64,000 bases of DNA from Geobacillus kaustophilus (GTDB lineage Bacteria; Bacillota; Bacilli; Bacillales; Anoxybacillaceae), in contig NZ_JYBP01000003.1 in NCBI RefSeq assembly GCF_000948285.1, positions 806,001-870,000 of the forward strand. The letters are read 5' to 3'. Shown in pieces: positions 39,615-54,524 of this stretch (position 1 is the first letter of the stretch; every line of letters begins with the position of its first letter). Made by a program: the position numbers and the translations under genes. The notes under the pieces are model-generated. The model saw nothing but the letters and a program-made list of their open reading frames with translations. It was not told the DNA's origin and made no database searches.

Positions 39615-39832
39615 TTGACGAACAATTTTGCGGCGATGTAAGATGGTTTTGTAATCGATTACATAAATAAAAAGAAGCCGGCGAAGCGGATAGGGGCGCG
39701 GCGATGATAGACAAGTTGCCTTCATTGAAAAGGGGAACGTATAGGCGATGCCCGCTTTTCGGCTTTGTCGAGAAAAGAACAGACAAGTGAAAATAAGAAT
39801 TATTCATCGATTTGTATGTAATCGATTACAAG
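39615..39832 (+). promoter_or_regulatory. Promoter with two identical LacI-type operators
   Basis: TGTAATCGATTACA occurs at 39650-39663 and again at 39819-39832. A promoter with TTGACG (39615-39620) and TAAGAT (39639-39644) places the first copy at the transcription start. The same 14-mer lies before the LacI-type gene at 47016 and before the operon at 48162. Two sites 169 bases apart allow repression by looping. The 39586-39981 interval has no other gene. Confidence 0.8.
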
Positions 39833-39981
39833 CGATCGATGCATAGACAAGCAGTGGGGGATGCCGAGTCAAAAGTCAATGGATGTCATGTTCGGGGGGT
39901 GATTCGGGCAGTCGAAGCAACCACTATACGCGATGTCGTGCGGTGTTTGACTAATCCAAAATTTAAAGGGGGAGAATGACG

Positions 39982-41295
39982 ATGAAAAAGACATTAAAAG
40001 CATCGGCTGTTTTGTTAGCGCTTACGATGGGGCTCGCAGCATGCTCCGGCGGCCAAAGCGAGAGCCAGACGGGCACAGACAGCAAAAAAGAAGAAGAGAA
40101 AACGGGTCAATCTGAAAAAGTGAAAATTGTCTATGCCCGCGGCCAAGATTCCACGAAAGCCACTGAAAAAATCATCGAAGCGTTCGAGAAAGCGCACCCG
40201 AACATCGATGTAGAATTTCGCGAAATGCCGGCTGACACCGGGAAGCAGCATGACGCGTACGTCACGATGTTAAATGCACAGTCGTCGGAGATCGATGTCA
40301 TGGACCTCGACGTCATTTGGCCGGCTGAGTTTGCTCAAGCAGGTTATACACTGCCGCTCGACCGCTTTATTGAGAAAGACGGCATTGACCTCAGCAAATA
40401 CAACCAAGGGGCGCTTGCGGCAGGCAACTTCAATGGCAAGCAATGGGCGATGCCGAAATTCATTGATGCCGGCATGCTGTTCTATCGCACCGACCTTGTG
40501 CCGAAGGACAAAGTGCCGAAAACATGGGATGAACTGTTAAAAGAGGCGAAAGAGCTGAAAGGAAAAGGCGGCACGAAATTCGGCTATTTGATGCAGGCCA
40601 AACAATACGAAGGATTGGTGTGCAACGCCGTTGAATTTATCGCCTCTTATGGCGGGCAAATCGTTGATAAAAACGGAAATGTCGTGATCAACAGCCCAGA
40701 AACGATCAAAGGGCTGAAGAAAATGGTGGAAATCGTCAAGTCCGATGTTGTGCCGAGCAACATCACCACATTCACCGAACCAGAGTCGCATACAGCGTTC
40801 ATTGAAGGACAATCGCCGTTTATCCGCAACTGGCCTTATCAATACGCGCTGGCGAACGACAAAGAACAATCGAAAATCGTCGGCAAAGTCGGCGTGGCTC
40901 CGCTTCCGGCCGGGGACAAAGGTTCGGCTGCCGCGCTGGGCGGCTGGATGACTGCGATCAACAAGTATTCAAAACATCCGAAAGAAGCATGGGAATTTGT
41001 CAAATTTATGACGGGGCCGGAGGGGCAAAAAATTTCCGCGATTTACGGCGGTTTAGCGCCGACGCTTCCGGAATTGTTTAAAGACCCGGATGTCTTAAAA
41101 GCCAATCCGTTCTTTGCGGAAGAAGGGTTTGTCAATGCGTTGAACGCCGCCGTGCCGCGCCCGGTCGTCCCGAACTATCCGGAAATTTCGGAAATCATCC
41201 AAATCAACGTATCGAAAGCGCTGGCCGGGGAGCTGACGGTCGAACAAGCCGTGGCCAATATGGAAAAAGAAATGAAAGCAGCCTTGAATAAGTAA
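39982..41295 (+). CDS. ABC transporter sugar-binding lipoprotein (ThuE/trehalose-maltose type)
   Basis: 437 residues from the second of two close ATGs (39982), 7 bases after AAAGGGGGAG. Lipoprotein signal MKKTLKASAVLLALTMGLAAC. Family 1 solute-binding protein: VKIVYARGQDSTKATEKIIEAF, DVIWPAEFAQAG, and a C-terminal VANMEKEMKAALNK. The operators in front place it in the regulon of the LacI-type protein at 47016, together with the ThuA and oxidoreductase genes, so the ligand is probably a disaccharide or other glycoside rather than maltodextrin. Confidence 0.88.
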   Translation: MKKTLKASAVLLALTMGLAACSGGQSESQTGTDSKKEEEKTGQSEKVKIVYARGQDSTKATEKIIEAFEKAHPNIDVEFREMPADTGKQHDAYVTMLNAQSSEIDVMDLDVIWPAEFAQAGYTLPLDRFIEKDGIDLSKYNQGALAAGNFNGKQWAMPKFIDAGMLFYRTDLVPKDKVPKTWDELLKEAKELKGKGGTKFGYLMQAKQYEGLVCNAVEFIASYGGQIVDKNGNVVINSPETIKGLKKMVEIVKSDVVPSNITTFTEPESHTAFIEGQSPFIRNWPYQYALANDKEQSKIVGKVGVAPLPAGDKGSAAALGGWMTAINKYSKHPKEAWEFVKFMTGPEGQKISAIYGGLAPTLPELFKDPDVLKANPFFAEEGFVNALNAAVPRPVVPNYPEISEIIQINVSKALAGELTVEQAVANMEKEMKAALNK

Positions 41296-41403
41296 GGCGA
41301 ATGGCTTGGCCGGCGCGCTGCAGCCGATCGGAATCCGGCCAACGCCGGCCAATGCCCCATCAGCCAAACAAAGAACGCCATTTTGTTTGACCACTTTCGG
41401 TTC

Positions 41404-41445
41404 ATTAGCCTTCAGGCCGCGATCTGCCCGGTGCTGAAGGCTAAT
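41404..41445 (+). terminator. Intra-operon hairpin between binding protein and permease
   Basis: ATTAGCCTTCA (41404-41414) pairs with TGAAGGCTAAT (41435-41445), an 11-bp stem followed by ATCCTTTTCC. Probably a partial terminator or RNA-stabilising hairpin that makes binding protein more abundant than permease. Confidence 0.6.
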
Positions 41446-41477
41446 ATCCTTTTCCAAGCAGAAGGGAGAGAACAGCG

Positions 41478-42785
41478 ATGAGGAATGAAAAGCGAATGGA
41501 GCGCCTACTAGGCTATTCGCTTGTCGCGCCGGCCATGCTGCTCATTTTGGCGATTGCCATTTGGCCTGTCATCCAGTCCTTTTATTACAGCTTGTTCGAC
41601 TATCGGCTCAACGACCCGACCAAATCGTCGATTCACTGGAGTTACAGCCTCGATCTGGAAGGATATCTACAAAACTATCCGTTCCTCAAAAGCGCTCTTA
41701 AGCAGGAAATGGCGGCTGCGGATGGACAAACGAAACAAACGTTGGCGCAAATCGAACAAAAACTCGCGAAACTGGACGCGGCGATCCGTTCCAACGATCA
41801 AGTGGCGAAGCAATATGACAAAGTGAACGAAGTGCTCGACAATTTCGAGACGCCAAGCGATGAGCTGAAGATCGCCGAGCTGGACAAACAGACGGCCGAG
41901 CGGCTGACCGACACGGTTCATGATGTCGTAAAGACGCTCAAGGAGATGAAAAAAGCGGGCGAACTGCAGCAGGCGGATAAAGTCGTCGGCTTGGCCGAAG
42001 GGCTCGAAGGGGTCGTGATCGAGCCGAACTTTGTCGGCCTCAAGCATTATAAGGACAGCTTCAGCGACATGCGCTTATGGAAAGCGTTATGGAATACGAC
42101 GTTCTTTACGGTGGTGTCGGTCGCCATTGAGCTGGTGTTAGGGCTCGGAATTGCGTTGCTCATCAATAAGGCCTTTTTTGGCCGCGGGCTTGTGCGGGCG
42201 ACGATTTTGATTCCGTGGGCGATTCCGACGGCCGTATCCGCGCTTATGTGGAAATTTTTATACGATGGACAAAACGGCATTGTCGCCAAATATTTCGAAA
42301 CGGTCGGCCTTGTCGACCGGATGGGGGATTTGTTGACGACGGAAGCGGGGGCGATGTTTGCGGTCATTTTTGCCGATGTATGGAAGACAACCCCCTATAT
42401 GGCGCTTTTGCTGCTTGCTGGGCTGCAAACGATCCCGAGTTCGTTGTATGAAGCCGCCTCGATCGACGGAGCCACCAAATGGCAGCAATTCACGAAAATC
42501 ACACTGCCGCTGTTAAAATCGAGCATTTTAGTGGCGTTGTTGTTCCGCACGCTTGATGCGTTCCGCGTGTTCGATTTGATTTACGTCTTAACCGGCGGGG
42601 GGCCGGCAAACTCGACGGAGACGATTTCGATTTTAGCCTACAAAGTCATGTTCTCGCAGACGAATTTCGGCGCGGGATCGGCGCTCGCTGTCATCGTGTT
42701 TCTCTGCGTGGCGGTGATTTCCATGATCTATATTCGCTGGCTTGGGAGAGATTTGCTGTCTGATGGCTCCAGCGTCAAACGATAA
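41478..42785 (+). CDS. ABC sugar permease (MalF type) with a large coiled-coil insert
   Basis: 435 residues, about 130 longer than a standard permease. After the first membrane helix (LLGYSLVAPAMLLILAIAIWP) comes an extracytoplasmic stretch of about 140 residues, dominated by charged heptads (LAQIEQKLAKLDAAIRS, later DTVHDVVKTLKEMKKAGELQ), before the second helix. The remaining five helices and the EAA loop (YEAASIDGATKWQQFTKIT) are normal. The insert is in the place of the P2 loop of E. coli MalF but looks coiled-coil. It may contact the binding protein. Confidence 0.9.
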   Translation: MRNEKRMERLLGYSLVAPAMLLILAIAIWPVIQSFYYSLFDYRLNDPTKSSIHWSYSLDLEGYLQNYPFLKSALKQEMAAADGQTKQTLAQIEQKLAKLDAAIRSNDQVAKQYDKVNEVLDNFETPSDELKIAELDKQTAERLTDTVHDVVKTLKEMKKAGELQQADKVVGLAEGLEGVVIEPNFVGLKHYKDSFSDMRLWKALWNTTFFTVVSVAIELVLGLGIALLINKAFFGRGLVRATILIPWAIPTAVSALMWKFLYDGQNGIVAKYFETVGLVDRMGDLLTTEAGAMFAVIFADVWKTTPYMALLLLAGLQTIPSSLYEAASIDGATKWQQFTKITLPLLKSSILVALLFRTLDAFRVFDLIYVLTGGGPANSTETISILAYKVMFSQTNFGAGSALAVIVFLCVAVISMIYIRWLGRDLLSDGSSVKR

Positions 42786-42800
42786 CGAAGGGGTGAGACG

Positions 42801-43628
42801 ATGCAAAAAAAAGCTGGTCCGTTCTTTTACGTGTTTTTGGCCCTGTTTGTGTTCTTTGTGATGTTTCCGTTTTTATGGGTTTTGCTCAGTTCCGTTAAGC
42901 CGCTCAGCGAATTGTTTGGCGACAAAGCGTTCAATTGGTTTACGAGCCATCCGACCTTGAAATCCTATGTGTCGGTATTTGTCAATTACCCGTTTTTGCG
43001 CTATTTATGGAACAGCACGGTCGTTGCGACCATTACGACGGTGTATACGGTATTTGTCGCCGCGTTTGCGGCTTATGCGATCGCGCGCTTGGAGTTTAAA
43101 GGCAAGACGGTCATTCTCGGCTTGGTGCTGGCCGTGTCCATGTTTCCGCAAATTGCCACCATTTCTCCGATTTACATGTTTGTGAAAAAGTTCGGGTTGA
43201 CGAACAGCTATTTAGGATTGATCATTCCGTATACGACGTTTGCCTTGCCGCTCTCGATCTGGCTGCTCGTCACCTTTTTCCGCAAGATTCCGTTTGACTT
43301 GGAAGAAGCGGCGAAAATGGACGGGGCGACGCCGATGCAAACGTATTTTAAAATCATTTTGCCACTCGCGGTGCCAGGGGTGTTTACGACATCCATTCTC
43401 GTCTTCATTGCCGCATGGAACGAATTTTTATTTGCCTTGACGATCAATACGGCGGAAAAATACAAAACCGTTCCGGTCGGGATTGCCATGTTCCAAGGCC
43501 AGTATACGATCCCGTGGGGCGAAATTTCCGCGGCCACCGTGATTGTGACGATTCCGCTCGTCATCATGGTGCTGTTGTTCCAGCGCCGCATCGTTTCCGG
43601 GCTCACATCCGGCTCGGTAAAAGAATAA
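42801..43628 (+). CDS. ABC sugar permease (MalG type)
   Basis: 275 residues with GAAGGGGTGAG upstream. Six membrane helices and a canonical EAA loop, LEEAAKMDGATPMQTYFKII. It ends in VSGLTSGSVKE, as in other MalG-type proteins. Forms the pore with the preceding permease. No ATPase gene follows, so a shared MsmX-type ATPase is assumed. Confidence 0.92.
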   Translation: MQKKAGPFFYVFLALFVFFVMFPFLWVLLSSVKPLSELFGDKAFNWFTSHPTLKSYVSVFVNYPFLRYLWNSTVVATITTVYTVFVAAFAAYAIARLEFKGKTVILGLVLAVSMFPQIATISPIYMFVKKFGLTNSYLGLIIPYTTFALPLSIWLLVTFFRKIPFDLEEAAKMDGATPMQTYFKIILPLAVPGVFTTSILVFIAAWNEFLFALTINTAEKYKTVPVGIAMFQGQYTIPWGEISAATVIVTIPLVIMVLLFQRRIVSGLTSGSVKE

Positions 43629-43642
43629 GGAACCAACACGAC

Positions 43643-43675
43643 AAAGGATGCCAGGCGAGCATCCTTTTGTTTTTT
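43643..43675 (+). terminator. Terminator of the ABC transporter operon
   Basis: AAAGGATGC (43643-43651) pairs with GCATCCTTT (43659-43667), followed by TGTTTTTTG. The rest of 43676-43906 has no gene; an AT-rich stretch at about 43790-43830 may hold the promoter of the next gene. Confidence 0.85.
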
Positions 43676-43906
43676 GCGGCAACACCAATTTTAAAACACG
43701 AAACAGAGAAGGAGCAGTTCTATCAGCTCCACTCCGTTCATATGTTAATGGCAGACGTCTGGCGGGGAGGGATGCGTAAAAGCCAAAGATATAAAAGATA
43801 TATACAATTAATATTCTGAATATTAACAAAAATGGCGATAGCAGCCGGGAAAGGGGGTGGAATTTGATTTTACTCTTTTTTGCACCAATCAAGGGGAGGG
43901 GAAGGC

Positions 43907-44362
43907 GTGCGATTTGACCGTCCGTTTGAGCAGTATGTGGTAGGCGAACGCCATCGTTCGCGCGGGCGGACGATTACGGAAGCCGATATTGTACAGTTTG
44001 CCGGCGTTTCCGGAGATTTTTATCCGCTGCACATGGACCGGGAATATGGAGAGCAGACGCCATTTGGCGAACGGATCGCCCATGGGATGCTGACGCTGTC
44101 GGCGGCGACGGGGCTGTGGACGATGAAGCCGGGAATGGTTCTGGCGTTTTATGGCATCGATTCATTGCGTTTTGTCCGTCCCGTGAAGATCGGCGATACG
44201 ATTTATGTGGAATCGGAAGTCAAACGGTTAACCGAACGGGGAGAAACAGCGGGGCTCGTGACGGTGCATCAACGGATCGTCAACCAGCGCGGAGAAACGG
44301 TCGTCGATGCGGTTGTGCATGTGCTTGTAGCGCGGGAAGGAAATGCCTCTGCAAGAGGCTAG
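43907..44362 (+). CDS. MaoC-like (R)-specific enoyl-CoA hydratase/dehydratase
   Basis: 151 residues from GTG 43907, 5 bases after GGGGAGGGG. Hot-dog fold with the hydratase 2 motif ITEADIVQFAGVSGDFYPLHMD, where the Asp and His form the catalytic pair. Then FGERIAHGMLTLSAATGLW and FVRPVKIGDTIYVESEV. It hydrates or dehydrates an acyl-CoA-type thioester; substrate unknown. Not obviously linked to the sugar genes around it. Confidence 0.88.
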   Translation: MRFDRPFEQYVVGERHRSRGRTITEADIVQFAGVSGDFYPLHMDREYGEQTPFGERIAHGMLTLSAATGLWTMKPGMVLAFYGIDSLRFVRPVKIGDTIYVESEVKRLTERGETAGLVTVHQRIVNQRGETVVDAVVHVLVAREGNASARG

Positions 44363-44389
44363 CAGCAAATGGGAGGTTTCTAGAATCGG

Positions 44390-44404
44390 TTGCAAGCGGT
44401 TTCA
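44390..44404 (+). promoter_or_regulatory. Perfect cre site before the MFS transporter
   Basis: TTGCAAGCGGTTTCA fits the CcpA consensus WTGNAANCGNWNNCW at every position. It lies 91 bases before the start at 44495, in the region where a promoter would be. Carbon-catabolite control by CcpA is likely. Confidence 0.7.
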
Positions 44405-44494
44405 AAGAAGGGTAAAGATGATTCTTGAGAAAATGGGCCTTATTGATCGGTTTTTCCTGCTGTCAGATCAAATGAAAGGGAAGGAGTGTTGCCG

Positions 44495-45790
44495 ATGGCG
44501 ATGTCAACGATGGATGCGGCCGAATTGAAACGCCAAAAAAAGCGGGCCGCCATATCGAGTGTGGTCGGCACGACGATTGAATGGTACGATTTCTTTCTCT
44601 ATGGAACGATGGCGGCTCTCGTGTTTCCGCAATTATTCTTTCCACAAGGAGATTCGTACGTCGCATTGATGCAATCTTTTACGACCTTTGCTTTAGGATT
44701 TATCGCCAGGCCGGTCGGCGCCGCGATTTTCGGCCACTTTGGCGATCGGATCGGACGCAAGGCGACGTTGGTGGCCACCTTGCTTTTGATGGGACTGGCG
44801 ACGGCGTTGATCGGCCTGATGCCGACCTATGAACAAATCGGCCTGTGGGCGCCGGTGTTGGTGACCGCGCTTCGTCTTATTCAAGGCATTGGCGTCGGCG
44901 GGGAATGGGGCGGCGCTATATTGATCGCCATGGAATGGGAGGAAGGCAAGCGGCGCGGATTGATGGCTTCGCTGCCGCAAATGGGCGTGCCGTTCGGGCT
45001 GTTGTCCTCTTCCTTTGTGACGACGCTTATGTTGGCCATTGGCGGCGACAGCTTTTATGCGTGGGGATGGCGCGTTCCGTTTCTCGTCAGCTTCCTTCTC
45101 ATCGCCATCGGGCTGTATATCCGGCTGAAAGTGCTCGAATCGCCGCTGTTCCAAGAAGCGATGAAAAAACAAGAAACGAGCAAGATGCCGGTCGGCGAGG
45201 TGCTGGTCAAGCATCCGCGCGAAATTCTATGGTCAGCGCTGGCGCGGGTGATTGAAAACGGGTCGTTCTACATTTTTGTCACGTTTATCGTCAGCTATGG
45301 GACGACATTTTTGGGGATGGAAAAAAGCATTTTCGTCAATGTGACGATTATCGCCGCGGTGATCAACGCGCTTTCCATCGTGTATTCCGGGCATTTGTCC
45401 GACCGGTGGGGCCGCCGCCGCGTCTACATGACGGGAACGATTTTGCTGATGCTTTGGGCGTTTCCGTATTATTGGCTTGTCAATACGAAAAGTGTCGGGC
45501 TTATCTTTTTGGCGACGGTTGTGGCCATGGTGTTCCACGGCATGCTGTATGGCCCGCAGGCGGCCATGATCGCGGAAAACTTCCCGACGCGCCTGCGCTA
45601 CAGCGGCGCTTCGCTCGGCTACCAGTTGGCCTCGATCATTGCTGGCGGCCCAGCGCCGCTCGTGAGCACGTGGCTGCTGCACAAATACGGCAGCGCCACG
45701 GCCATCTCCTTCTATATCGTCGTTATGGGCTTGATCTCGCTGGCCGGGGTGAAAATGCTGCAAGACCGTGCACGCCAGGCGATTGACTAA
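44495..45790 (+). CDS. MFS transporter, metabolite:H+ symporter (MHS) type
   Basis: 431 residues from ATG 44495, 8 bases after AAGGAG. Twelve membrane helices. MHS/sugar-porter signature GHFGDRIGRKATLV between helices 2 and 3, SSVVGTTIEWYDFFLYGTMA at helix 1 (the MHS hallmark), GGEWGGAILIAMEW, and HLSDRWGRRRVY in the second half. Relatives carry organic acids or osmolytes (citrate, shikimate, alpha-ketoglutarate, proline/betaine). The cre site suggests a carbon source as substrate. Confidence 0.9.
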   Translation: MAMSTMDAAELKRQKKRAAISSVVGTTIEWYDFFLYGTMAALVFPQLFFPQGDSYVALMQSFTTFALGFIARPVGAAIFGHFGDRIGRKATLVATLLLMGLATALIGLMPTYEQIGLWAPVLVTALRLIQGIGVGGEWGGAILIAMEWEEGKRRGLMASLPQMGVPFGLLSSSFVTTLMLAIGGDSFYAWGWRVPFLVSFLLIAIGLYIRLKVLESPLFQEAMKKQETSKMPVGEVLVKHPREILWSALARVIENGSFYIFVTFIVSYGTTFLGMEKSIFVNVTIIAAVINALSIVYSGHLSDRWGRRRVYMTGTILLMLWAFPYYWLVNTKSVGLIFLATVVAMVFHGMLYGPQAAMIAENFPTRLRYSGASLGYQLASIIAGGPAPLVSTWLLHKYGSATAISFYIVVMGLISLAGVKMLQDRARQAID

Positions 45791-45800
45791 AATCGGATGG

Positions 45801-45831
45801 GCGCCTTTGCTTCAACGCAAAGGCGCTCTTT
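45801..45831 (+). terminator. Terminator after the MFS gene
   Basis: GCGCCTTTGC (45801-45810) pairs with GCAAAGGCGC (45817-45826), followed by TCTTT. Confidence 0.85.
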
Positions 45832-45868
45832 CACATCGCCTGCCCGCGGTGTGGACGAGCGGACTGTT

Positions 45869-46307
45869 TTAAATGTCCATGCTCATCGTAATGGTTTTAT
45901 GTTTGAATCCTAATGTTTCATACAGTTTAATCGCTCGATTTCCTGCATATACACGTAAACGAACCTCTGAATACCCATCTTGTTTGAGATGTTCGATGCC
46001 AGTTTTTATCAATTGTTTTGCAATTCCCTTTCCCCTAAATTCCTCTAACACAAACAATTCGTAGATAAATCCATATATTTTTTTCAGTAAATGGGTCTTT
46101 GCTTTCTCCGATCAGAATCCAACCCATGAGATGATCGCCATCCGTTGCGATCAAATAATAGCCTCCTTTCTGCAATACGGGTTCAATAAGTCGCTTAACT
46201 TTTTCATCTGATCGCTTTGCCTCCCCTAATGTGCCCTCGAATAATGCTTGTGGTGTGAGTGATAAAATCTTTTTGTATTCCGAATCGTTTGATTTTCTAA
46301 TTTCCAT
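45869..46307 (-). pseudogene. GNAT N-acetyltransferase, frameshifted
   Basis: The start is good (AGAGGAGAA before the ATG complementary to 46305-46307). The first frame reads MEIRKSNDSEYKKILSLTPQ through GWILIGESKDPFTEKN. The second gives GFIYELFVLEEFRGKGIAKQL, the acetyl-CoA-binding motif, and a normal end at YETLGFKHK. The switch is in an A-run near 46080, and one more A would restore a single frame of about 146 residues. Either a true pseudogene or an indel error. Confidence 0.8.
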
Positions 46308-46432
46308 GGAGTTCTCCTCTCCCAACTATTTATCATCCAGCTCCAATCGCACCAACATGAGCAAAAACTCTTCTTTCTCACTTTTTCAATATACCACATT
46401 TTGCGTTTCTCGATTTCTTGCGCCTCTCGAAA

Positions 46433-46560
46433 GAGCGGGATCCCAAACCGGATGATTGCGATCATCTTGGATTTTCCCCATATTCACCACAACTCAATCC
46501 GATCGAGCGTTTATGGAAATGGCATCAATGTCTTTCACAAGGACCGTCACGAGATCCTTC
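46433..46560 (+). pseudogene. IS630-type transposase remnant
   Basis: A short frame contains FSPYSPQLNPIERLWKWHQ, the highly conserved C-terminal block of IS630/Tc1-like DDE transposases. Nothing upstream matches the rest of such a protein and no ends are visible, so this is a decayed scrap. The following 46560-46940 holds no gene; a small hairpin ATGCAG/CTGCAT with a T-run is at 46824-46845. Confidence 0.65.
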
Positions 46561-46945
46561 AAGCTGTTCAACGATTATGTTTATCTTTAAAAGTCAAGTA
46601 CATCTTTTGGTTAGTAACCATAAATTGTTATAAATTCTATTTTAATGCATATAGAAATGAGAAAGGGGATTCGTGTGCCCTTTTTGACTTTGCTCATTGG
46701 AAATGATAGTTTAATATAAAAAAATACAAAAAGCATGTGAGGGAAACACCAAAAGAATACATCGGATTGTACAATCTTCCTCACAAAAAACAACATCGCA
46801 AAAAGCTCCTATGTATTTTTTTCATGCAGTTCTCTGCATTTTTTGCCTGCAAAAAACACAACGCATCTGATCGAGTGTTTGTGAAAATTTTTTAGCATAT
46901 GAGAAATAGGTAAATCATGTCTAAGGCGGATCGAAAAAACAACGC

Positions 46946-46994
46946 TTGACAACCGCCCTGTCTTTTCGATACGATGGTGATGTAATCGATTACA
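46946..46994 (+). promoter_or_regulatory. Promoter and operator of the LacI-type regulator
   Basis: TTGACA (46946-46951) and TACGAT (46970-46975) are 18 bases apart. The operator TGTAATCGATTACA (46981-46994) lies at the transcription start, 21 bases before the start codon, implying autoregulation. Confidence 0.8.
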
Positions 46995-47015
46995 TAAGCG
47001 AGAGGACTACGATCA

Positions 47016-48017
47016 ATGGCAAGCATAAAAGACGTGGCGAAACGGGCGAACGTATCGACGGCCACCGTGTCGCGCGTGCTGCGCAACGCGGGCAACGTCA
47101 CCGAAGAGACGAAACAGCGCGTGCTCGAAGCGATTGAAGCGCTGAACTACCAGCCGAATGTGCTCGGCCGGTATTTGCGACGGATGGAGACCGAGACGGT
47201 TCTCGTCGTCGTGCCTGATATTACGAATCCGTTTTTCTCGAAAGTGCTGCGCGGCATTGAAGCGGTCGCCCTCGAGCACGGCTATCAGGTGCTGCTTGGC
47301 GATACGCAAAATGATGTCCGGCTTGAGGAGCAGTATTTGAATTTGCTGCCGCAGCGGCAAGTCGACGGGATGATTTTTTTGACCGCCCGCATCCGCAAAG
47401 AGCTGGTGGAAGAGATGGCGCGGCAGTTTCCAATCGTCTTGGCGTGCGAGTATTTGGAAGGGACGGACATCCCGACCGTTTCGATCGACAACATCAGCAG
47501 CGCCCGCAAGGCGACAGAACATTTGATCCGCCTCGGCCATCGCCGCATCGCCCACTTGTCCGGGCCGATGAACATTATTTTAAGCCGCGATCGGCTGCGC
47601 GGCTACCAACAGGCGCTGGCCCAGCATGAGCTGGAGGCGGACGCCGTTCTTGTGCAGGAGGGCGATTTCACCTATGAGTCCGGATATAATTTGACGTTGA
47701 AGCTGCTCGCTCTTGAGAAGCCGCCGACGGCGATTTTTGCTGCCAATGACGAGATGGCGATCGGGACGATCAAAGCGGTTCGCCATCGCGGCGGGCGCGT
47801 TCCGGACGATGTGGCGGTCGTCGGATTTGACGACATTCAAATGGCCTCGATTTTTGAACCGAGCCTCACGACGATCGCCCAGCCGATGTTTGAGATCGGC
47901 CAAAAAGCGATGGAACTGCTGCTCGAGCTGATTGAAGGAACCGGGGTCGAGCGGCGTCAGCTCGTTCTTCCCGACCGGCTCGTCATCCGTGATTCATGTG
48001 GGGGGAGAGCGCCCTGA
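47016..48017 (+). CDS. LacI-family transcriptional regulator of the ThuA/oxidoreductase regulon
   Basis: 333 residues. HTH at the N-terminus: [21 protein letters not shown], then the hinge helix ([13 protein letters not shown]). The effector domain has [62 protein letters not shown] and [17 protein letters not shown]. Four copies of a perfect palindrome lie upstream of this gene, of the operon downstream and (twice) of the ABC operon. The CG-centred palindrome is typical of LacI-type DNA sites, so this protein is the likely binder. The inducer is unknown. Confidence 0.92.
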
Positions 48018-48077
48018 GTAAAGAGGAGGGCAGCGCTCCGCGTCCGATGCGGGGAACGGGCGGATTTTTTGCACGAT

Positions 48078-48095
48078 GATGTAATCGATTACATC
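48078..48095. promoter_or_regulatory. Operator before the oxidoreductase/ThuA operon
   Basis: GATGTAATCGATTACATC is a perfect 18-bp palindrome with the 14-mer TGTAATCGATTACA (48080-48093) at its centre, 66 bases before the start at 48162. It is identical to the sites at 39650, 39819 and 46981. Confidence 0.85.
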
Positions 48096-48161
48096 ACGGA
48101 AAATGGTCGGTGAACCGATGGAGTATGGAAACAGAAAAAATGAACGCAAGGGGGAAAGGAC

Positions 48162-49241
48162 ATGGGAAACACCCTTCCAATCCGCCTCGGCTTAATCGGG
48201 GCTGGGGGCATTTCCAACGAACATATCAAGGCGGCGCAAAAGCTTTCGGAGCGCGCTGTCTTGCAGGCGATTTGCGACGTCAATGAACAAGCGGCCGCGG
48301 AAAAAGCGAAAACGTACGGCATCCGCAACGTGTACCGCGACTATAAGGAATTGATTGCGTCGCCCGATGTCGATGCCGTCATCATCACCGTGCCGAACTT
48401 TTTGCACGCCCAAGCGTCGGTCGACAGCTTGCGGGCCGGGAAACACGTTCTTTGCGAAAAGCCGATGGTGACGAAAGCGGAAGAGGCGGACGCCATTATC
48501 CGCGCCCGCGACGAATCAGGCAAACAGTTTATGGTGGCGCTGAACAATCGGTTCCGCCAAGCGGCGCAGTGGCTGCATGAGCGAATCCAATCCGGCGCGT
48601 TCGGTGAGATTTATTACGCGAAAACGGGCTGGGTGCGCCGCCGCGGCATTCCCGCATGGGGGGCGTGGTTTTTTGACCGCGAGCGCTCCGGCGGCGGGCC
48701 GCTCATCGATTTGGGCGTCCATATGCTCGATGTGACGCTTTGGCTGCTCGGGAACCCGAACCCAGTCGCGGTGACGGGGAAAACGTACGCGAAGTTCGGC
48801 CCGCGCCGCCAAGGGGCTTGGCCGGGGACATCGTTTGCGCCGAATGCCGCGTATACGGTTGAAGATTTTGCCACAGCGTTCATCCAGCTCGAAAACGACG
48901 CGACGGTGCTGCTTGAGACGAGCTGGGCGTCCCACATTGAAGAAGAGCGGGCGTATGTCGAGTTTCTCGGCACGGAAGGCGGCGTGCGCTGGGAGTGGAA
49001 CATCGCCGGCAACCGCCAAGAAGTGAAATGGTTCCGCAACGAACACGGCGTCCCGGCCGATGTGACGCTTCATTTTGATGATCAAAGCGAACGGGTGGCG
49101 CTCCTTGACCACTTCTTGACCAGCATCACCGAAAATACGCCGCCGCTTTGCACCGCCGAACAAGGGCTCATGATTGCCAAAGTGTTGGAAGCGATTTACG
49201 AATCGTCCGAACAAGGCCGGCAAGTCCGCATCGAATGGTAG
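48162..49241 (+). CDS. Gfo/Idh/MocA-family NAD(P)-dependent oxidoreductase (first)
   Basis: 359 residues. Rossmann motif LGLIGAGGISNEH, the catalytic lysine in CEKP (Lys100), and the second catalytic motif GPLIDLGVHMLD with Asp183 and His187. Enzymes of this family oxidise or reduce a sugar or cyclitol hydroxyl, often at C3. First gene of a repressor-controlled operon with ThuA, a second member of this family and an isomerase-like TIM barrel. This copy has WFFDRERSGGG before the catalytic motif, typical of members acting on larger glycosides, but the substrate cannot be read. Confidence 0.9.
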   Translation: MGNTLPIRLGLIGAGGISNEHIKAAQKLSERAVLQAICDVNEQAAAEKAKTYGIRNVYRDYKELIASPDVDAVIITVPNFLHAQASVDSLRAGKHVLCEKPMVTKAEEADAIIRARDESGKQFMVALNNRFRQAAQWLHERIQSGAFGEIYYAKTGWVRRRGIPAWGAWFFDRERSGGGPLIDLGVHMLDVTLWLLGNPNPVAVTGKTYAKFGPRRQGAWPGTSFAPNAAYTVEDFATAFIQLENDATVLLETSWASHIEEERAYVEFLGTEGGVRWEWNIAGNRQEVKWFRNEHGVPADVTLHFDDQSERVALLDHFLTSITENTPPLCTAEQGLMIAKVLEAIYESSEQGRQVRIEW

Positions 49242-49319
49242 GAAGAAATCGAAAGAACGATGGGCCTGACCGCCTCCATATGGCGCGCGGGTCGAAAACG
49301 AATGGCAGGGGGAACGAAT

Positions 49320-50069
49320 ATGGCTGCACCAATCCGCGTTGTCGTCTGGAACGAATTTCGCCATGAAAAGAAAGATGAACAGGTAAGAGCCATTTATCCG
49401 GAAGGGATGCATACCGTCATCGCGAGCTACCTAGCCGAAGCTGGGTTTGACGCCGCAACCGCTGTGCTCGACGAACCGGAGCACGGCTTGACGGACGAGG
49501 TGCTCGACCGGTGCGACGTCCTCATCTGGTGGGGGCATATCGCCCATGACGAAGTGAGCGATGAAGTCGTTGAGCGCGTCCACCGCCGCGTGCTCGAAGG
49601 AATGGGGCTCATCGTCCTTCATTCCGGCCATTTCTCGAAAATTTTCAAAAAGCTGATGGGGACGACATGCAATTTGAAATGGCGCGAAGCCGATGAAAAA
49701 GAGCGGCTTTGGGTCGTCGCCCCGGGCCATCCGATCGTGGAAGGGATCGGACCGTACATTGAGCTTGAGCAGGAAGAAATGTACGGCGAGTTTTTCGACA
49801 TCCCGGAACCGGAGGAAACGATTTTCATCAGCTGGTTTGAAGGCGGGGAAGTGTTCCGCAGCGGCTGCACGTTCACGCGCGGGAAAGGGAAAATTTTCTA
49901 CTTCCGCCCCGGCCATGAAACGTATCCGACGTACCATCACCCAGATGTGCTGAAAGTGATCGCCAACGCCGTCCGCTGGGCCGCGCCGGTCAACCGCGGG
50001 GAAATCGTCTTCGGCAACGTCAAGCCGCTTGAGCCGATCAAAGCGAAACAAGGGGGGATGACGCCATGA
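49320..50069 (+). CDS. ThuA-domain protein
   Basis: 249 residues from ATG 49320, preceded by AGGGGGAA; an upstream in-frame ATG at 49260 has none. ThuA family (class I glutamine-amidotransferase-like fold): [21 protein letters not shown] at the N-terminus, [33 protein letters not shown], and [17 protein letters not shown] near the end. In Sinorhizobium ThuA takes part in making 3-keto-trehalose in trehalose use. The stop overlaps the next start (ATGA), so it is coupled to the second oxidoreductase, as ThuA is to ThuB. Confidence 0.9.
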
Positions 50070-51220
50070 AACCGATCAACGTCGGCATCATCGGCACCGG
50101 CTTTTCCGCTTCTTCCCATATTGAGGCGCTCCGCCGCCTGCCGTTGGTGAACATTGTCGCCATTGCCTCAAGCAGTCAAGAAAAAGCGGAGGAAGCCGCG
50201 CGCCGGTTCGGGATTCCGAAAGCATACGGCGACTACCGCGCCTTGATTGACGACCCGGACGTCGAAGCCGTTCACAACTGCACGCGCAACGTCCTCCATT
50301 TCCCGATCAACAAGGCGGTGCTTGAGGCGGGAAAACATTTATTGTCGGAAAAGCCGCTCGCCATGGACAGCGAACAGTCGGCCGAATTGAAGCGGCTCGC
50401 TGAACAAAGCGAAAGCCTTAGCGCGGTCTGTTTCAACTACCGCCACTACCCGCTCGTTGTCGAGGCGAAAGAGCGGCTCGCCCGTGAGGCGAAGCGCGTC
50501 CATTTCGTGTACGGCGGCTATGTGCAAGACTGGCTCTTGTATGACACCGACTACAACTGGCGGCTCGACCCGGCGCAAAACGGCCCATCGCGCGCCATCG
50601 CCGACATCGGTTCGCACTGGTGCGACACGGTGCAGTATGTGCTCGGCAAGAAAATCGTCGAAGTATTTGCCGACTTGCGCACCGTTCACCCGGTTCGCTA
50701 TAAGCCGAAACAGGAAGAGAGCACATTCACAGCCAGCGGTGCTCAAGACGCCGAGCCAGTCCAGATTGACACCGAAGACGGCGGCAGCGTGCTCGTCCAT
50801 TTTGACGACGGCACCCACGGGGCGTTTACGATTTCCCAAGTGAGCGCCGGCCGGAAAAACCGGCTGTATTTTGAAATTGCCGCCGATGAGATGACGCTCG
50901 CCTGGGATCAAGAGCATCCGAACCGCCTCTGGGTCGGGCGCCGCAGCGGCCCAAACGAAGAAATCGTCCGCGACCCGGCGCTTCTTTCGCCGCGCGCAGC
51001 GTCCCTCGCCCATTACCCGGGCGGCCATGAAGAAGGCTGGCCGGACGGGCTGAAGAACTTGTTTTTAGATTTTTACAGCGCCATCATCCGGAAGCAGCGC
51101 GGCGAGGCGCTCGGGGAGCTGCCGTTTGCGACGATCGCCGACGGCCACCACACGATGGCGATTGTCGATGCCATTTTGGAAAGCCATCGCACGAAACGGT
51201 GGGTGCGGGTGTTGGAATAA
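50066..51220 (+). CDS. Gfo/Idh/MocA-family NAD(P)-dependent oxidoreductase (second, ThuB-like)
   Basis: 384 residues. [15 protein letters not shown] nucleotide-binding motif, SEKP with Lys96, and [16 protein letters not shown] with Asp180 and His184. It differs clearly from the first copy (longer, [20 protein letters not shown] before the catalytic motif), so the two probably act on different substrates or in opposite directions. Coupled to the ThuA gene. ThuB, the partner of ThuA in rhizobia, belongs to this family. Confidence 0.9.
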
Positions 51221-51353
51221 GCGGCGTCAGCACCGCGGAGACGTCGGCCTCGTTTTGCTCGCTGGGCGCTAGATGATGCCACAACAAAATGGAACGGCGG
51301 AGCCGGCCGCCGACCGGCCGGCTTCACACCGCTAGAAAGGGGAGAAGAACGAG

Positions 51354-52325
51354 ATGAAAGTAGGCGTATTTACCGTCTTGTATCAACAGCTGCCGTTGGA
51401 AGACATGCTCGACAAAGTCGCCGCCATGGGCATTGAGGCCGTTGAGCTTGGCACCGGCAATTACCCGGGCAACGCCCATTGCGATCCTGACGCACTTTTG
51501 GACCAGCCGGAAAAAATCAAAGCTCTGAAAAAAGCCGTCGCCGACCGCGGCCTTGTGATCAGCGCCTTAAGCTGCCATGGCAACCCGCTTCATCCGGACA
51601 AAGCGTTCGCGAAACAGTCGCATGATACATGGAGGAAAACGGTCAGGCTCGCTGAGCAGCTTGAAGTCCCGGTCATCAACGCCTTCTCCGGCTGCCCGGG
51701 CGACCATCCCGGCGCCAAATACCCAAACTGGGTCACGTGCTCTTGGCCGCCGGATTACTTGGAAATTTTAAAATGGCAATGGGAAGAAGTCGTCATCCCG
51801 TACTGGCGCGAAGAAGCAGCGTTCGCCAAGGAGCACGGCATCACGCAAATCGCCTTTGAAATGCATCCGGGCTTCGTCGTCTACAACCCGGAAACGCTCC
51901 TCAAACTGCGCGAACACGTCGGTGAAGCGATCGGCGCCAACTTTGACCCGAGCCACTTGCTTTGGCAAGGCATCGACCCGGTTGAGGCGATCAAACTGCT
52001 CGGCCGCGAAAAAGCGATTTTCCACGTCCATGCGAAAGACACGTACTTAGACGAAGCGAACATCCGCAAAAACGGCGTGCTCGATACGAAACATTACAGC
52101 CAAATTCTCGATCGCTCATGGGTGTTCCGCACCGTCGGCTACGGGCAAAGCGAAAAAATGTGGCGCGACATCGTCAGCGCCCTGCGCGCCGTCGGCTACG
52201 ACTACGTGCTGTCAATCGAACACGAAGATATGCTCGCTTCGATCGATGAAGGGCTGTCAAAGGCCGTCGCCCTCTTGAAAAAGGTGTTGTTCAAAGAAGA
52301 ACTGCCGGAGATGTGGTGGGCATAA
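51354..52325 (+). CDS. Sugar phosphate isomerase/epimerase-like TIM-barrel protein
   Basis: 323 residues. AP endonuclease 2/xylose isomerase-like barrel with the four expected metal ligands Glu169 (FEMHPG), Asp198 (NFDPSH), His224 (HVHAKD) and Glu289 (IEHED). Such proteins act as sugar epimerases, as inosose dehydratase (IolE) or, in C-glycoside degradation, as lyases on 3-keto-glycosides. After 133 bases containing a hairpin (AGCCGGCC/GGCCGGCT, 51301-51323) it closes the operon. A lyase or epimerase step on a 3-keto-sugar fits the neighbours but is inference. Confidence 0.9.
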   Translation: MKVGVFTVLYQQLPLEDMLDKVAAMGIEAVELGTGNYPGNAHCDPDALLDQPEKIKALKKAVADRGLVISALSCHGNPLHPDKAFAKQSHDTWRKTVRLAEQLEVPVINAFSGCPGDHPGAKYPNWVTCSWPPDYLEILKWQWEEVVIPYWREEAAFAKEHGITQIAFEMHPGFVVYNPETLLKLREHVGEAIGANFDPSHLLWQGIDPVEAIKLLGREKAIFHVHAKDTYLDEANIRKNGVLDTKHYSQILDRSWVFRTVGYGQSEKMWRDIVSALRAVGYDYVLSIEHEDMLASIDEGLSKAVALLKKVLFKEELPEMWWA

Positions 52326-54197: not shown

Positions 54198-54524
54198 ATG
54201 CCAATATACAACAAACTCGTTCGCGACCGCATTCCAATCATTATCGAGCAATCGGGAAAAACGTTCACAACCCGCATACTTGACGATGAAGAGTATAGGA
54301 AAGAACTGCAGAAAAAAGCGTTTGAAGAGCTTGAGGAATACGTCCAAGCGGAAACGGATGAGGCGGCTCTTGAAGAGCTCGCAGACGTGTTGGAAATTAT
54401 CCATGCTTTGGCTGAATGCCATGGCGCTTCGATCGAGCAAGTTGAACAAATTCGTTCTAAAAAAGCGGAACAGCGCGGCGGCTTCCGCGAAAAAATTTTC
54501 TTGATCGAGGTTCACGATGAGTAA
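54198..54524 (+). CDS. MazG-like nucleotide pyrophosphohydrolase
   Basis: 108 residues from ATG 54198, 7 bases after GGAGG. All-alpha NTP pyrophosphatase fold of the short MazG/PRA-PH type: MPIYNKLVRDRIPIIIEQSGK at the start, then the metal-binding ELEEYVQAETDEAALEELADVLEII (EExxE-12-ExxD-like). It hydrolyses nucleoside triphosphates, perhaps damaged ones. The stop overlaps the helicase start by 8 bases, so the two are translationally coupled. Confidence 0.85.
   Translation: MPIYNKLVRDRIPIIIEQSGKTFTTRILDDEEYRKELQKKAFEELEEYVQAETDEAALEELADVLEIIHALAECHGASIEQVEQIRSKKAEQRGGFREKIFLIEVHDE

What the first reader, a model, noticed from the sequence alone, without database searches (positions are those of the whole stretch)
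39615..52325. Split regulon for a probable 3-keto-sugar pathway: ABC importer, LacI regulator, ThuA, two oxidoreductases and an isomerase-like barrel
The perfect 14-mer TGTAATCGATTACA occurs four times and only before these units: the importer (39650 and 39819), the regulator (46981) and the catabolic operon (48080). The operon has no glycoside hydrolase but two different Gfo/Idh/MocA enzymes, ThuA and a metal-binding barrel with all four ligands. In rhizobia thuEFGK-thuAB handles trehalose by making a 3-keto sugar, and in C-glycoside and related oxidative glycan pathways a Gfo/Idh enzyme makes the 3-keto form that a xylose-isomerase-like lyase cleaves. The combination here suggests oxidation at C3, cleavage without hydrolysis, and re-reduction by the second oxidoreductase. 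A thermophile with this set, in this order and with this regulon, looks undescribed to me.
Basis: partly seen in the sequence, partly recalled or inferred. Interest (0 to 1): 0.8.

Follow-up and report, generated by a model that had tools for sequence, protein, structure and literature searches.

The report
Sugar-splitting pathway regulon of Geobacillus
A heat-loving bacterium carries a jointly regulated set of genes that most likely imports a two-part sugar and splits it into glucose by oxidising it first instead of hydrolysing it, and the set suggests a job for ThuA, a widespread protein whose reaction is not known.

Summary
TGTAATCGATTACA occurs exactly four times in the 3.68 Mb genome, all before this importer, regulator and operon (one stated position is off by 2 bases). 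Ten of 14 genus genomes keep the same four sites, once with the importer 45 kb away.

Comparison refines the parts. LacI, Gfo2 and the barrel belong to the levoglucosan (lgd) lineage: Gfo2 resembles LgdC (3-ketoglucose reductase), the barrel LgdB2 (2-hydroxy-3-keto-glucal hydratase, weak eliminase). Importer and ThuA come from thu-type operons, which in other Bacillales form one contiguous LacI-importer-ThuA-Gfo-Gfo-barrel unit. Gfo1 resembles DgpA, a glycoside dehydrogenase. LgdA, LgdB1 and OGE-like eliminases were not found in the genome.

Best reading: a probably alpha-linked glucoside is imported, oxidised at C3 (Gfo1), cleaved, hydrated (barrel) and reduced to glucose (Gfo2). ThuA is the best candidate for cleavage, since the known eliminase AtOGE does not cut 3'-keto-maltose. 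Against this, 53 of 75 ThuA-bearing Bacillales genomes also carry an OGE-like protein, and LgdB2 eliminates weakly.

The chemistry is known; the hybrid operon and ThuA's role are new proposals. Nothing was tested biochemically.

The parts
39615..39644 (+). Importer promoter-like TTGACG-18-TAAGAT, 5 nt before operator 1
   Evidence: seen in the 9 genus genomes printed in importer orientation; in the tenth (G150) only the part nearest the operator is printed, reversed, and agrees
39650..39663 (.). Operator 1, TGTAATCGATTACA
39817..39830 (.). Operator 2, TGTAATCGATTACA, 167 bp from operator 1
   Evidence: spacing 161-187 bp across the genus, no fixed helical phase
39976..41295 (+). Solute-binding protein of the importer (ThuE-like)
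   Evidence: PF01547; 35% to the S. meliloti ThuE-position gene; 55-71% to SBPs contiguous with ThuA in other Bacillales
41478..42785 (+). Permease, MalF/ThuF type
   Evidence: PF00528; 47% to the ThuF-position gene
42801..43628 (+). Permease, MalG/ThuG type; a terminator-like stem follows at 43643-43667
   Evidence: PF00528; 44% to the ThuG-position gene
46946..46975 (+). lacI promoter-like TTGACA-18-TACGAT, 5 nt before operator 3
46981..46994 (.). Operator 3
47016..48017 (+). LacI-family regulator, lgd-type lineage
   Evidence: PF00356; 62-67% to LacIs of lgd-type clusters; quick tree
48080..48093 (.). Operator 4, before the catabolic operon
48162..49241 (+). Gfo1: DgpA-like Gfo/Idh/MocA, proposed glycoside 3-dehydrogenase
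   Evidence: 7xr9 DgpA 234 bits and 9m3d DgpA1 231 bits, next entry 107 bits
49320..50069 (+). ThuA (PF06283), proposed 3-keto-glucoside-cleaving enzyme
   Evidence: 1t0b 99%; 63.5% to S. meliloti ThuA; start
50066..51220 (+). Gfo2: LgdC-like, proposed 3-ketoglucose reductase; overlaps the ThuA stop by 4 bases
   Evidence: 52-62% to LgdC-position genes in Bacillales clusters
51354..52325 (+). LgdB2-type barrel, proposed 2-hydroxy-3-keto-glucal hydratase with weak eliminase activity
   Evidence: 64-80% to 14 barrels outside the genus, 8 of them in clusters with LgdA and LgdB1 homologues; tree; AtHYD 8ro4; invariant E169, D198, H224, H226, E289, E291

Best explanation
A LacI-type repressor binds four copies of TGTAATCGATTACA and controls uptake and breakdown of a glucoside, most likely an alpha-linked disaccharide. 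SBP-MalF-MalG import it, powered by an MsmX/UgpC-type ATPase encoded elsewhere. Gfo1 oxidises the glucose ring at C3; the 3-keto glucoside is then cleaved, most likely by ThuA, with the barrel as possible helper; the barrel hydrates the resulting 2-hydroxy-3-keto-glucal to 3-ketoglucose; Gfo2 reduces that to glucose and regenerates NAD+. Shown: gene content, sites, their conservation, homologies, mixed origin. Inferred: regulator binding, every reaction, substrate class, role of ThuA.
For: Regulon. Importer and ThuA in one contiguous operon in other Bacillales (SBP 55-71%, MalF 52-70%, MalG 63-85%, ThuA 64-73% identical). Barrel and regulator in the lgd lineage; in L039 the neighbouring LGDH is over its NCBIfam cut-off, 758 against 650 bits; LgdB2 and LgdC activities published (PMC7676230, parts 1-2 of 4 read). 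Barrel close to AtHYD in structure. Gfo1 close to DgpA. ThuA accompanies the barrel: all 75 ThuA-bearing (E 1e-25) of 150 order genomes have it (E 1e-40), none of the 61 others has ThuA. Missing eliminases: no OGE-like protein or LgdB1 in this genome at E 1e-5, and no LGDH over cut-off. Alpha-linked substrate: in Paenibacillus JDR-2 a thuAB-like pair stands beside an ABC importer about 10-fold up on maltose (PMC4765114 section 9); a Priestia plasmid has alpha-glycosidase, maltose binding protein, ThuA, Gfo, sugar phosphate isomerase/epimerase, ATPase, glucokinase and pullulanase side by side; GH13 near 11 of 131 ThuA loci. AtOGE does not cleave 3'-keto-maltose (PMC10628242 section 11). ATPase 61% to ThuK over 249 residues elsewhere in the genome.
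Against: No substrate, binding or activity data. ThuA does not simply replace an eliminase elsewhere: 53 of 75 ThuA-bearing order genomes also carry an OGE-like barrel and 32 of 131 ThuA loci have one within 7.5 kb. GH13 is near only 11 of 131. LgdB2 itself has weak eliminase activity (PMC7676230), so ThuA may not be needed for cleavage. Across 299 genomes of the phylum 3 of 13 ThuA-bearing genomes lack the barrel at E 1e-20. 14 of 89 barrel-bearing order genomes have no ThuA; one of them, G041, has importer, two Gfo and barrel. Of 131 ThuA loci, 32 have no barrel of this type nearby and 16 neither barrel nor Gfo detected. Gfo1's best relatives act on C-glycosides, which points to another substrate class. 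ThuB is only 26% (Gfo2) and 30% (Gfo1) identical. Association counts are not corrected for relatedness.
Confidence: 0.55

Rival explanations
1. Same pathway, but the LgdB2-type barrel does both elimination and hydration, and ThuA has an accessory role (for instance handling the other half of the substrate, an anomer or a side product).
For: LgdB2 of B. smithii is partly bifunctional (PMC7676230); 14 of 89 barrel-bearing order genomes have no ThuA; Gfo-barrel pairs without ThuA exist.
Against: LgdB2's eliminase activity on 3-keto-levoglucosan was judged weak by its authors; ThuA has 80 invariant residues in 36 sequences, nine of them His, which fits an enzyme; the S. meliloti thu region and a Deinococcus ThuA-Gfo pair show no barrel beside them (annotation tables; no match to our barrels in L263).
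Confidence: 0.3
2. The substrate is a C- or aryl-O-beta-glucoside (plant natural product), as for DgpA and its relatives.
For: Gfo1's two best solved relatives are DgpA and DgpA1, far ahead of all others.
Against: No second barrel in the operon and no OGE-like protein in the genome (CGE itself was not used as a query); importer and ThuA go with thu-type operons.
Confidence: 0.2
3. It is a levoglucosan operon.
For: LacI, LgdC and LgdB2 homologues of lgd clusters.
Against: LgdA is not present over its cut-off (151 and 122 bits against 650) and LgdB1 not found; the importer is of another type than the RbsABC-like one of lgd clusters; genome G155 has a separate complete lgd cluster besides this operon.
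Confidence: 0.05
4. Inositol-type catabolism (Gfo as inositol dehydrogenase, barrel as IolE).
For: Weak family resemblance of Gfo1 to IolG and of the barrel to IolE.
Against: Scores far under cut-off: 142 of 355 and 36 of 290 bits; AtHYD is the closer structural match.
Confidence: 0.04
5. The 14-mer is only a catabolite (CcpA cre) site, not the operator of this LacI protein.
For: It fits the cre pattern (recalled), and the one near-miss lies at a lactate-permease-like gene.
Against: Only 4 of 40 cre-like sites in the genome have this sequence and all are here; the site stands before lacI itself and near lacI in some lgd clusters of other genomes.
Confidence: 0.1

Closest known systems
Levoglucosan (lgd) operon of Bacillus smithii S-2701M (PMC7676230)
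   Same: LacI regulator, LgdC-type reductase next to LgdB2-type barrel, thermophilic Bacillota, oxidation-elimination-hydration-reduction logic
   Different: LgdA and LgdB1 not found; DgpA-like Gfo1 and ThuA in their stead; MalFG-type importer without its own ATPase gene. The B. smithii sequences themselves were not compared, only clusters recognised as lgd in other genomes
thuEFGKAB operon of rhizobia (trehalose, maltitol, sucrose isomers; seen here as a reference title, and as S. meliloti pSymB sequence)
   Same: ThuA 63.5%, importer components 35, 47 and 44% identical
   Different: no ThuK in the operon; Gfo1 and Gfo2 only 30 and 26% to ThuB; barrel and second oxidoreductase added
Bacillales operon LacI-SBP-MalF-MalG-ThuA-GfoA-GfoB-barrel (found here; no functional description seen)
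   Same: importer and ThuA are close relatives; same set of gene types in one run
   Different: barrel and LacI belong to other lineages, and the oxidoreductases match other types best by BLAST
Four-enzyme glycoside operons with DgpA/CGE or GlycDH/AtOGE/AtHYD (PMC10628242)
   Same: Gfo1 resembles DgpA; barrel resembles AtHYD in structure; same four chemical steps proposed
   Different: no OGE-like protein found; CGE not searched for as such; ThuA present

Membership tests
Levoglucosan (lgd) operon | LgdA, levoglucosan dehydrogenase over NF052479 cut-off (650 bits) | tested here: not met
   Gfo2 151-162 and Gfo1 122-131 bits; no other match in the genome at E 1e-30
Levoglucosan (lgd) operon | LgdB1 eliminase | tested here: not met
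   0 matches at E 1e-5 in this genome; 83% match in G155 serves as control
Levoglucosan (lgd) operon | LgdB2-type barrel next to LgdC-type reductase | tested here: met
   64-80% and 52-62% identity to the genes at those places, adjacent; tree of 115 barrels; B. smithii sequences themselves not compared
thuEFGKAB operon | ThuA | tested here: met
   63.5% over 222 aa to S. meliloti ThuA
thuEFGKAB operon | ThuEFG-type importer in the same regulon | tested here: met
   35, 47, 44%; contiguous with ThuA in other Bacillales
thuEFGKAB operon | ThuK in the operon | tested here: not met
   no ATPase among the genes scanned between 39976 and 52325; best homologue 61% at C3:2461957
thuEFGKAB operon | ThuB orthologue | tested here: not met
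   26-30% only; other Gfo proteins match ThuB as well or better
thuEFGKAB operon | 3-keto disaccharide formed from trehalose, maltitol or sucrose isomers | not testable with these tools
   needs an enzyme assay
C-glycoside operon (DgpA/CGE) | DgpA-like glycoside 3-dehydrogenase | tested here: met
   match over nearly the full length, 234 bits; activity not tested
C-glycoside operon (DgpA/CGE) | two-subunit CGE eliminase | tested here: inconclusive
   no second barrel gene in the operon; CGE sequences were not used as a query; an OGE-like query found none in the genome
Inositol catabolism | IolG and IolE over cut-off | tested here: not met
   142 of 355 and 36 of 290 bits

The most novel reading that the evidence does not exclude
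ThuA (PF06283) is an unassigned class of 3-keto-alpha-glucoside-cleaving enzyme with a glutamine-amidotransferase-like fold, the counterpart of the TIM-barrel eliminases OGE, CGE and LgdB1 for alpha-linked sugars. Geobacillus has built a four-enzyme path to glucose by joining a thu-type importer and ThuA to an lgd-type regulator, hydratase and reductase.
Probability: 0.35. Interest if true: 0.8.

Novelty: new variant of a known kind. Interest (0 to 1): 0.55.

Why it matters
ThuA is strongly conserved over great distances: of 231 plasmid records with a match, among them rhizobia, Deinococcus, Paenibacillus and haloarchaea, 202 are 60-80% identical (weakest listed 42%). A member has had a solved structure since 2004, yet I saw no reaction assigned to it in the papers listed. 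If it cleaves C3-oxidised alpha-glucosides, it fills the gap left by AtOGE, which cuts 3'-keto-cellobiose but not 3'-keto-maltose, and it would explain thuAB operons generally. The Geobacillus operon, with thermostable enzymes, no OGE-like or LgdB1-like protein found and a defined four-site regulon, is a clean place to test it.

Tried and rejected
Barrel as the lyase: set back, because it falls with LgdB2 and resembles AtHYD. ThuA as a strict replacement of an eliminase: weakened, because OGE-like proteins co-occur with ThuA in 53 of 75 genomes and one ThuA locus of 131 (L182) has an LgdB1-like neighbour. ThuA against lgd genes around 115 barrels: 73 with ThuA, 10 with lgd genes, 32 with neither, 0 with both; related rows make this weaker than its Fisher value suggests. 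DNA looping between operators 1 and 2: spacing 161-187 bp without a fixed phase, not supported. MaoC and MFS as pathway members: rejected, as they carry no 14-mer, a terminator-like stem precedes them and neither was matched in the thu-type loci. Only Foldseek structure matches were obtained; the VIA-align library was not available. Paper search was swamped by place names.

The lgd label needs LgdA at 50% or LgdB1 at 40% identity within 9 kb. One genus barrel of 14, cut at the end of its stretch, is not in the tree. The LacI tree is a quick one with long branches; 5 of 7 rows labelled lgd and one thu-type row (L115) lie in the fork with the genus, the other two lgd-labelled rows are distant LacIs. 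No tree was made for the oxidoreductases.


Full report
Observation. These are all four exact copies in the 3,684,318-base genome; one further site differs by one base and lies in the 5' part of a gene that by eye encodes an L-lactate permease. About 0.014 copies would be expected. Among 40 matches of the looser cre pattern in the genome only these four have this sequence. In the genus, 14 of 14 genomes examined carry the 14-mer; 10 have the importer pair plus the lacI and Gfo1 sites, while in G152, G154, G155 and G158 the importer is missing, in pieces or partial in the stretches fetched. In G093 the importer lies about 45 kb from lacI and still has both sites. Two of the sites stand 5 nt after promoter-like hexamers: the one before lacI is the best match of the regional scan (10 of 12), the one before the importer one of 14 at 9 of 12, and the scan as a whole finds 15 where shuffles give 9.1 +/- 2.7. 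Stronger than the scan is that this layout is kept across the genus while flanking bases drift. It is the geometry of a repressor site.

Genes. Pfam and NCBIfam give a solute-binding protein, two MalF/MalG-type permeases, a LacI regulator, two Gfo/Idh/MocA oxidoreductases, ThuA and a xylose-isomerase-like barrel; among the ten proteins scanned there is no glycoside hydrolase. None of the ten reaches an NCBIfam cut-off: levoglucosan dehydrogenase 131 and 162 of 650 bits, IolG 142 of 355, IolE 36 of 290. ThuA is 99% identical to the solved protein 1t0b. Gfo1 matches DgpA (7xr9, 234 bits) and DgpA1 (9m3d, 231 bits) over nearly its whole length; the next solved protein has 107 bits.

The lgd half. 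A search of 150 genomes of the order with the barrel found it in 89. Of the 14 homologues outside the genus at 64-80% identity (L038-L051), 8 lie in clusters with LgdA and LgdB1 homologues, typically LacI - small barrel - binding protein - dehydrogenase - ATPase - permease - Gfo - barrel; L038 and L041 have LacI, binding protein, ATPase, permease, Gfo and barrel without LgdA or LgdB1 in the stretch, and L042 and L048-L050 differ. In L039 the dehydrogenase scores 758 bits against the levoglucosan dehydrogenase cut-off of 650, and content and the order reductase-barrel match the lgd operon of Bacillus smithii S-2701M as described in PMC7676230 (parts 1 and 2 of 4 read). There LgdC reduces 3-ketoglucose and LgdB2 hydrates 2-hydroxy-3-keto-glucal, with some eliminase activity. 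The window's Gfo2 is 52-62%, LacI 62-67% identical to the genes at those places. In a tree of 115 barrels the 13 genus rows lie among the lgd-type barrels (that part of the tree is poorly resolved), outside a clade of 80 rows (support 100/99) that holds the other 60 ThuA-associated barrels. A quick LacI tree puts the 14 genus LacIs in one fork with 5 of 7 lgd-labelled rows (98%). Foldseek on the model of the barrel gives first 2zds (unknown function), then AtHYD, the 2-hydroxy-3-keto-glucal hydratase.

The thu half. In other Bacillales the importer and ThuA stand in one run, LacI-SBP-MalF-MalG-ThuA-GfoA-GfoB-barrel, for instance L113, L121-L124, L131, L147-L149 and L156 and several named species. 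Against S. meliloti pSymB, ThuA is 63.5%, SBP 35%, MalF 47% and MalG 44% identical to the thu genes; ThuB is only 26 and 30% identical to Gfo2 and Gfo1. No ATPase gene was seen in the operon; a 61% ThuK homologue lies elsewhere. The genus operon is therefore of mixed origin. One genus member, G155, has both a complete lgd cluster and this operon.

What cleaves? No OGE-like protein and no LgdB1 was found in the genome at E 1e-5, and the only LGDH-like matches are the two Gfo proteins of this operon, under cut-off; CGE was not used as a query. ThuA is the remaining enzyme-like protein. Its alignment of 36 sequences has 80 invariant positions including nine histidines; its fold is of the glutamine-amidotransferase type, and its nearest solved relatives apart from 1t0b (2gk3, 4jqs, 4e5v, 4pxy, 3soz) carry no function in their titles. 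In 150 order genomes all 75 with ThuA have the barrel and none of 61 without the barrel has ThuA; in 299 genomes of the phylum 10 of 13 do. These counts are not corrected for relatedness. The eliminase AtOGE cleaves 3'-keto-cellobiose but not 3'-keto-maltose even after 20 h (PMC10628242, section 11). thuAB-type operons are tied to alpha-glucosides: the rhizobial operon to trehalose, maltitol and sucrose isomers (title in a reference list; paper not held), Paenibacillus JDR-2 to maltose (PMC4765114, passages and section 9), and a Priestia plasmid places ThuA, a Gfo and a sugar phosphate isomerase/epimerase between an alpha-glycosidase and maltose importer on one side and an ATPase, glucokinase and pullulanase on the other. 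I therefore propose that ThuA cleaves 3-keto-alpha-glucosides.

Against. OGE-like proteins, whose best solved match is AtOGE itself (8bvk), occur in 54 of 150 order genomes, 53 of which also have ThuA; 22 ThuA genomes, the three of this genus in that sample included, have none at E 1e-25. So ThuA does not simply replace them; division by anomer would explain the co-occurrence, but so would another role of ThuA. LgdB2's own eliminase activity could make ThuA unnecessary for cleavage. Of 131 ThuA loci 32 show no barrel of this type and 16 neither barrel nor Gfo within 7.5 kb. Gfo1's resemblance to DgpA leaves C- and aryl glucosides open.

Novelty. The chemistry and most enzyme classes are known. 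The mixed operon, its conserved four-site regulon and the alpha-cleavage role for ThuA did not appear in the listings of the searches made of a library that lacks most subscription journals. Papers: PMC7676230 half read; PMC10628242 outline, sections 7, 8, 11 and passages; PMC10066097 outline and abstract; PMC4765114 passages and section 9; PMC5840395 two passages; the rest only as listings. Recalled and not from a call: the cre pattern, the usual role of MsmX-type ATPases, the IS630 motif, the metal-ligand assignment, and work on a related oxidative glycan pathway of gut bacteria that was not found in the library.

Noticed in passing
46478-46620: Short remnant whose frame starting at 46478 reads, by eye, like the end of an IS630-type transposase (motif recalled); it lies between the MFS gene and lacI and may mark how the importer was parted from the operon.
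   Followed up: partly
43880-45790: MaoC-like dehydratase and an MFS metabolite:H+ symporter lie between importer and regulator, kept together in many genus genomes but without the 14-mer and behind a terminator-like stem.
   Followed up: partly
L170 and L172 (G155): One genus member carries a complete lgd cluster, and a second lgd-type lacI with the 14-mer and identical printed flanks near the other end of its contig record, besides the window-type operon.
   Followed up: partly
54517-56967: Single protein with PLD-like, ResIII helicase and HNH-repeat matches, next to the finding; possible defence gene.
   Followed up: no
L038:14486-14938: A broken second LgdB2-like copy beside an lgd-related cluster (stops inside the match); left as seen.
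   Followed up: no
L262 (Priestia megaterium plasmid): ThuA, Gfo and sugar phosphate isomerase genes on a plasmid typed as mobilizable, together with alpha-glucan genes, HPr and glucokinase: perhaps a portable version of the pathway.
   Followed up: partly
L079-L084, L052: A further arrangement in Bacillales: T-type barrel divergent from LacI, RbsABC-like importer genes and a GfoA-type oxidoreductase, without ThuA.
   Followed up: no
L038:12420-14432: A fructoselysine-3-epimerase-like barrel and a zinc alcohol dehydrogenase stand beside the LgdC-LgdB2 pair where LgdA and LgdB1 are absent: perhaps yet another entry into the same lower pathway.
   Followed up: no
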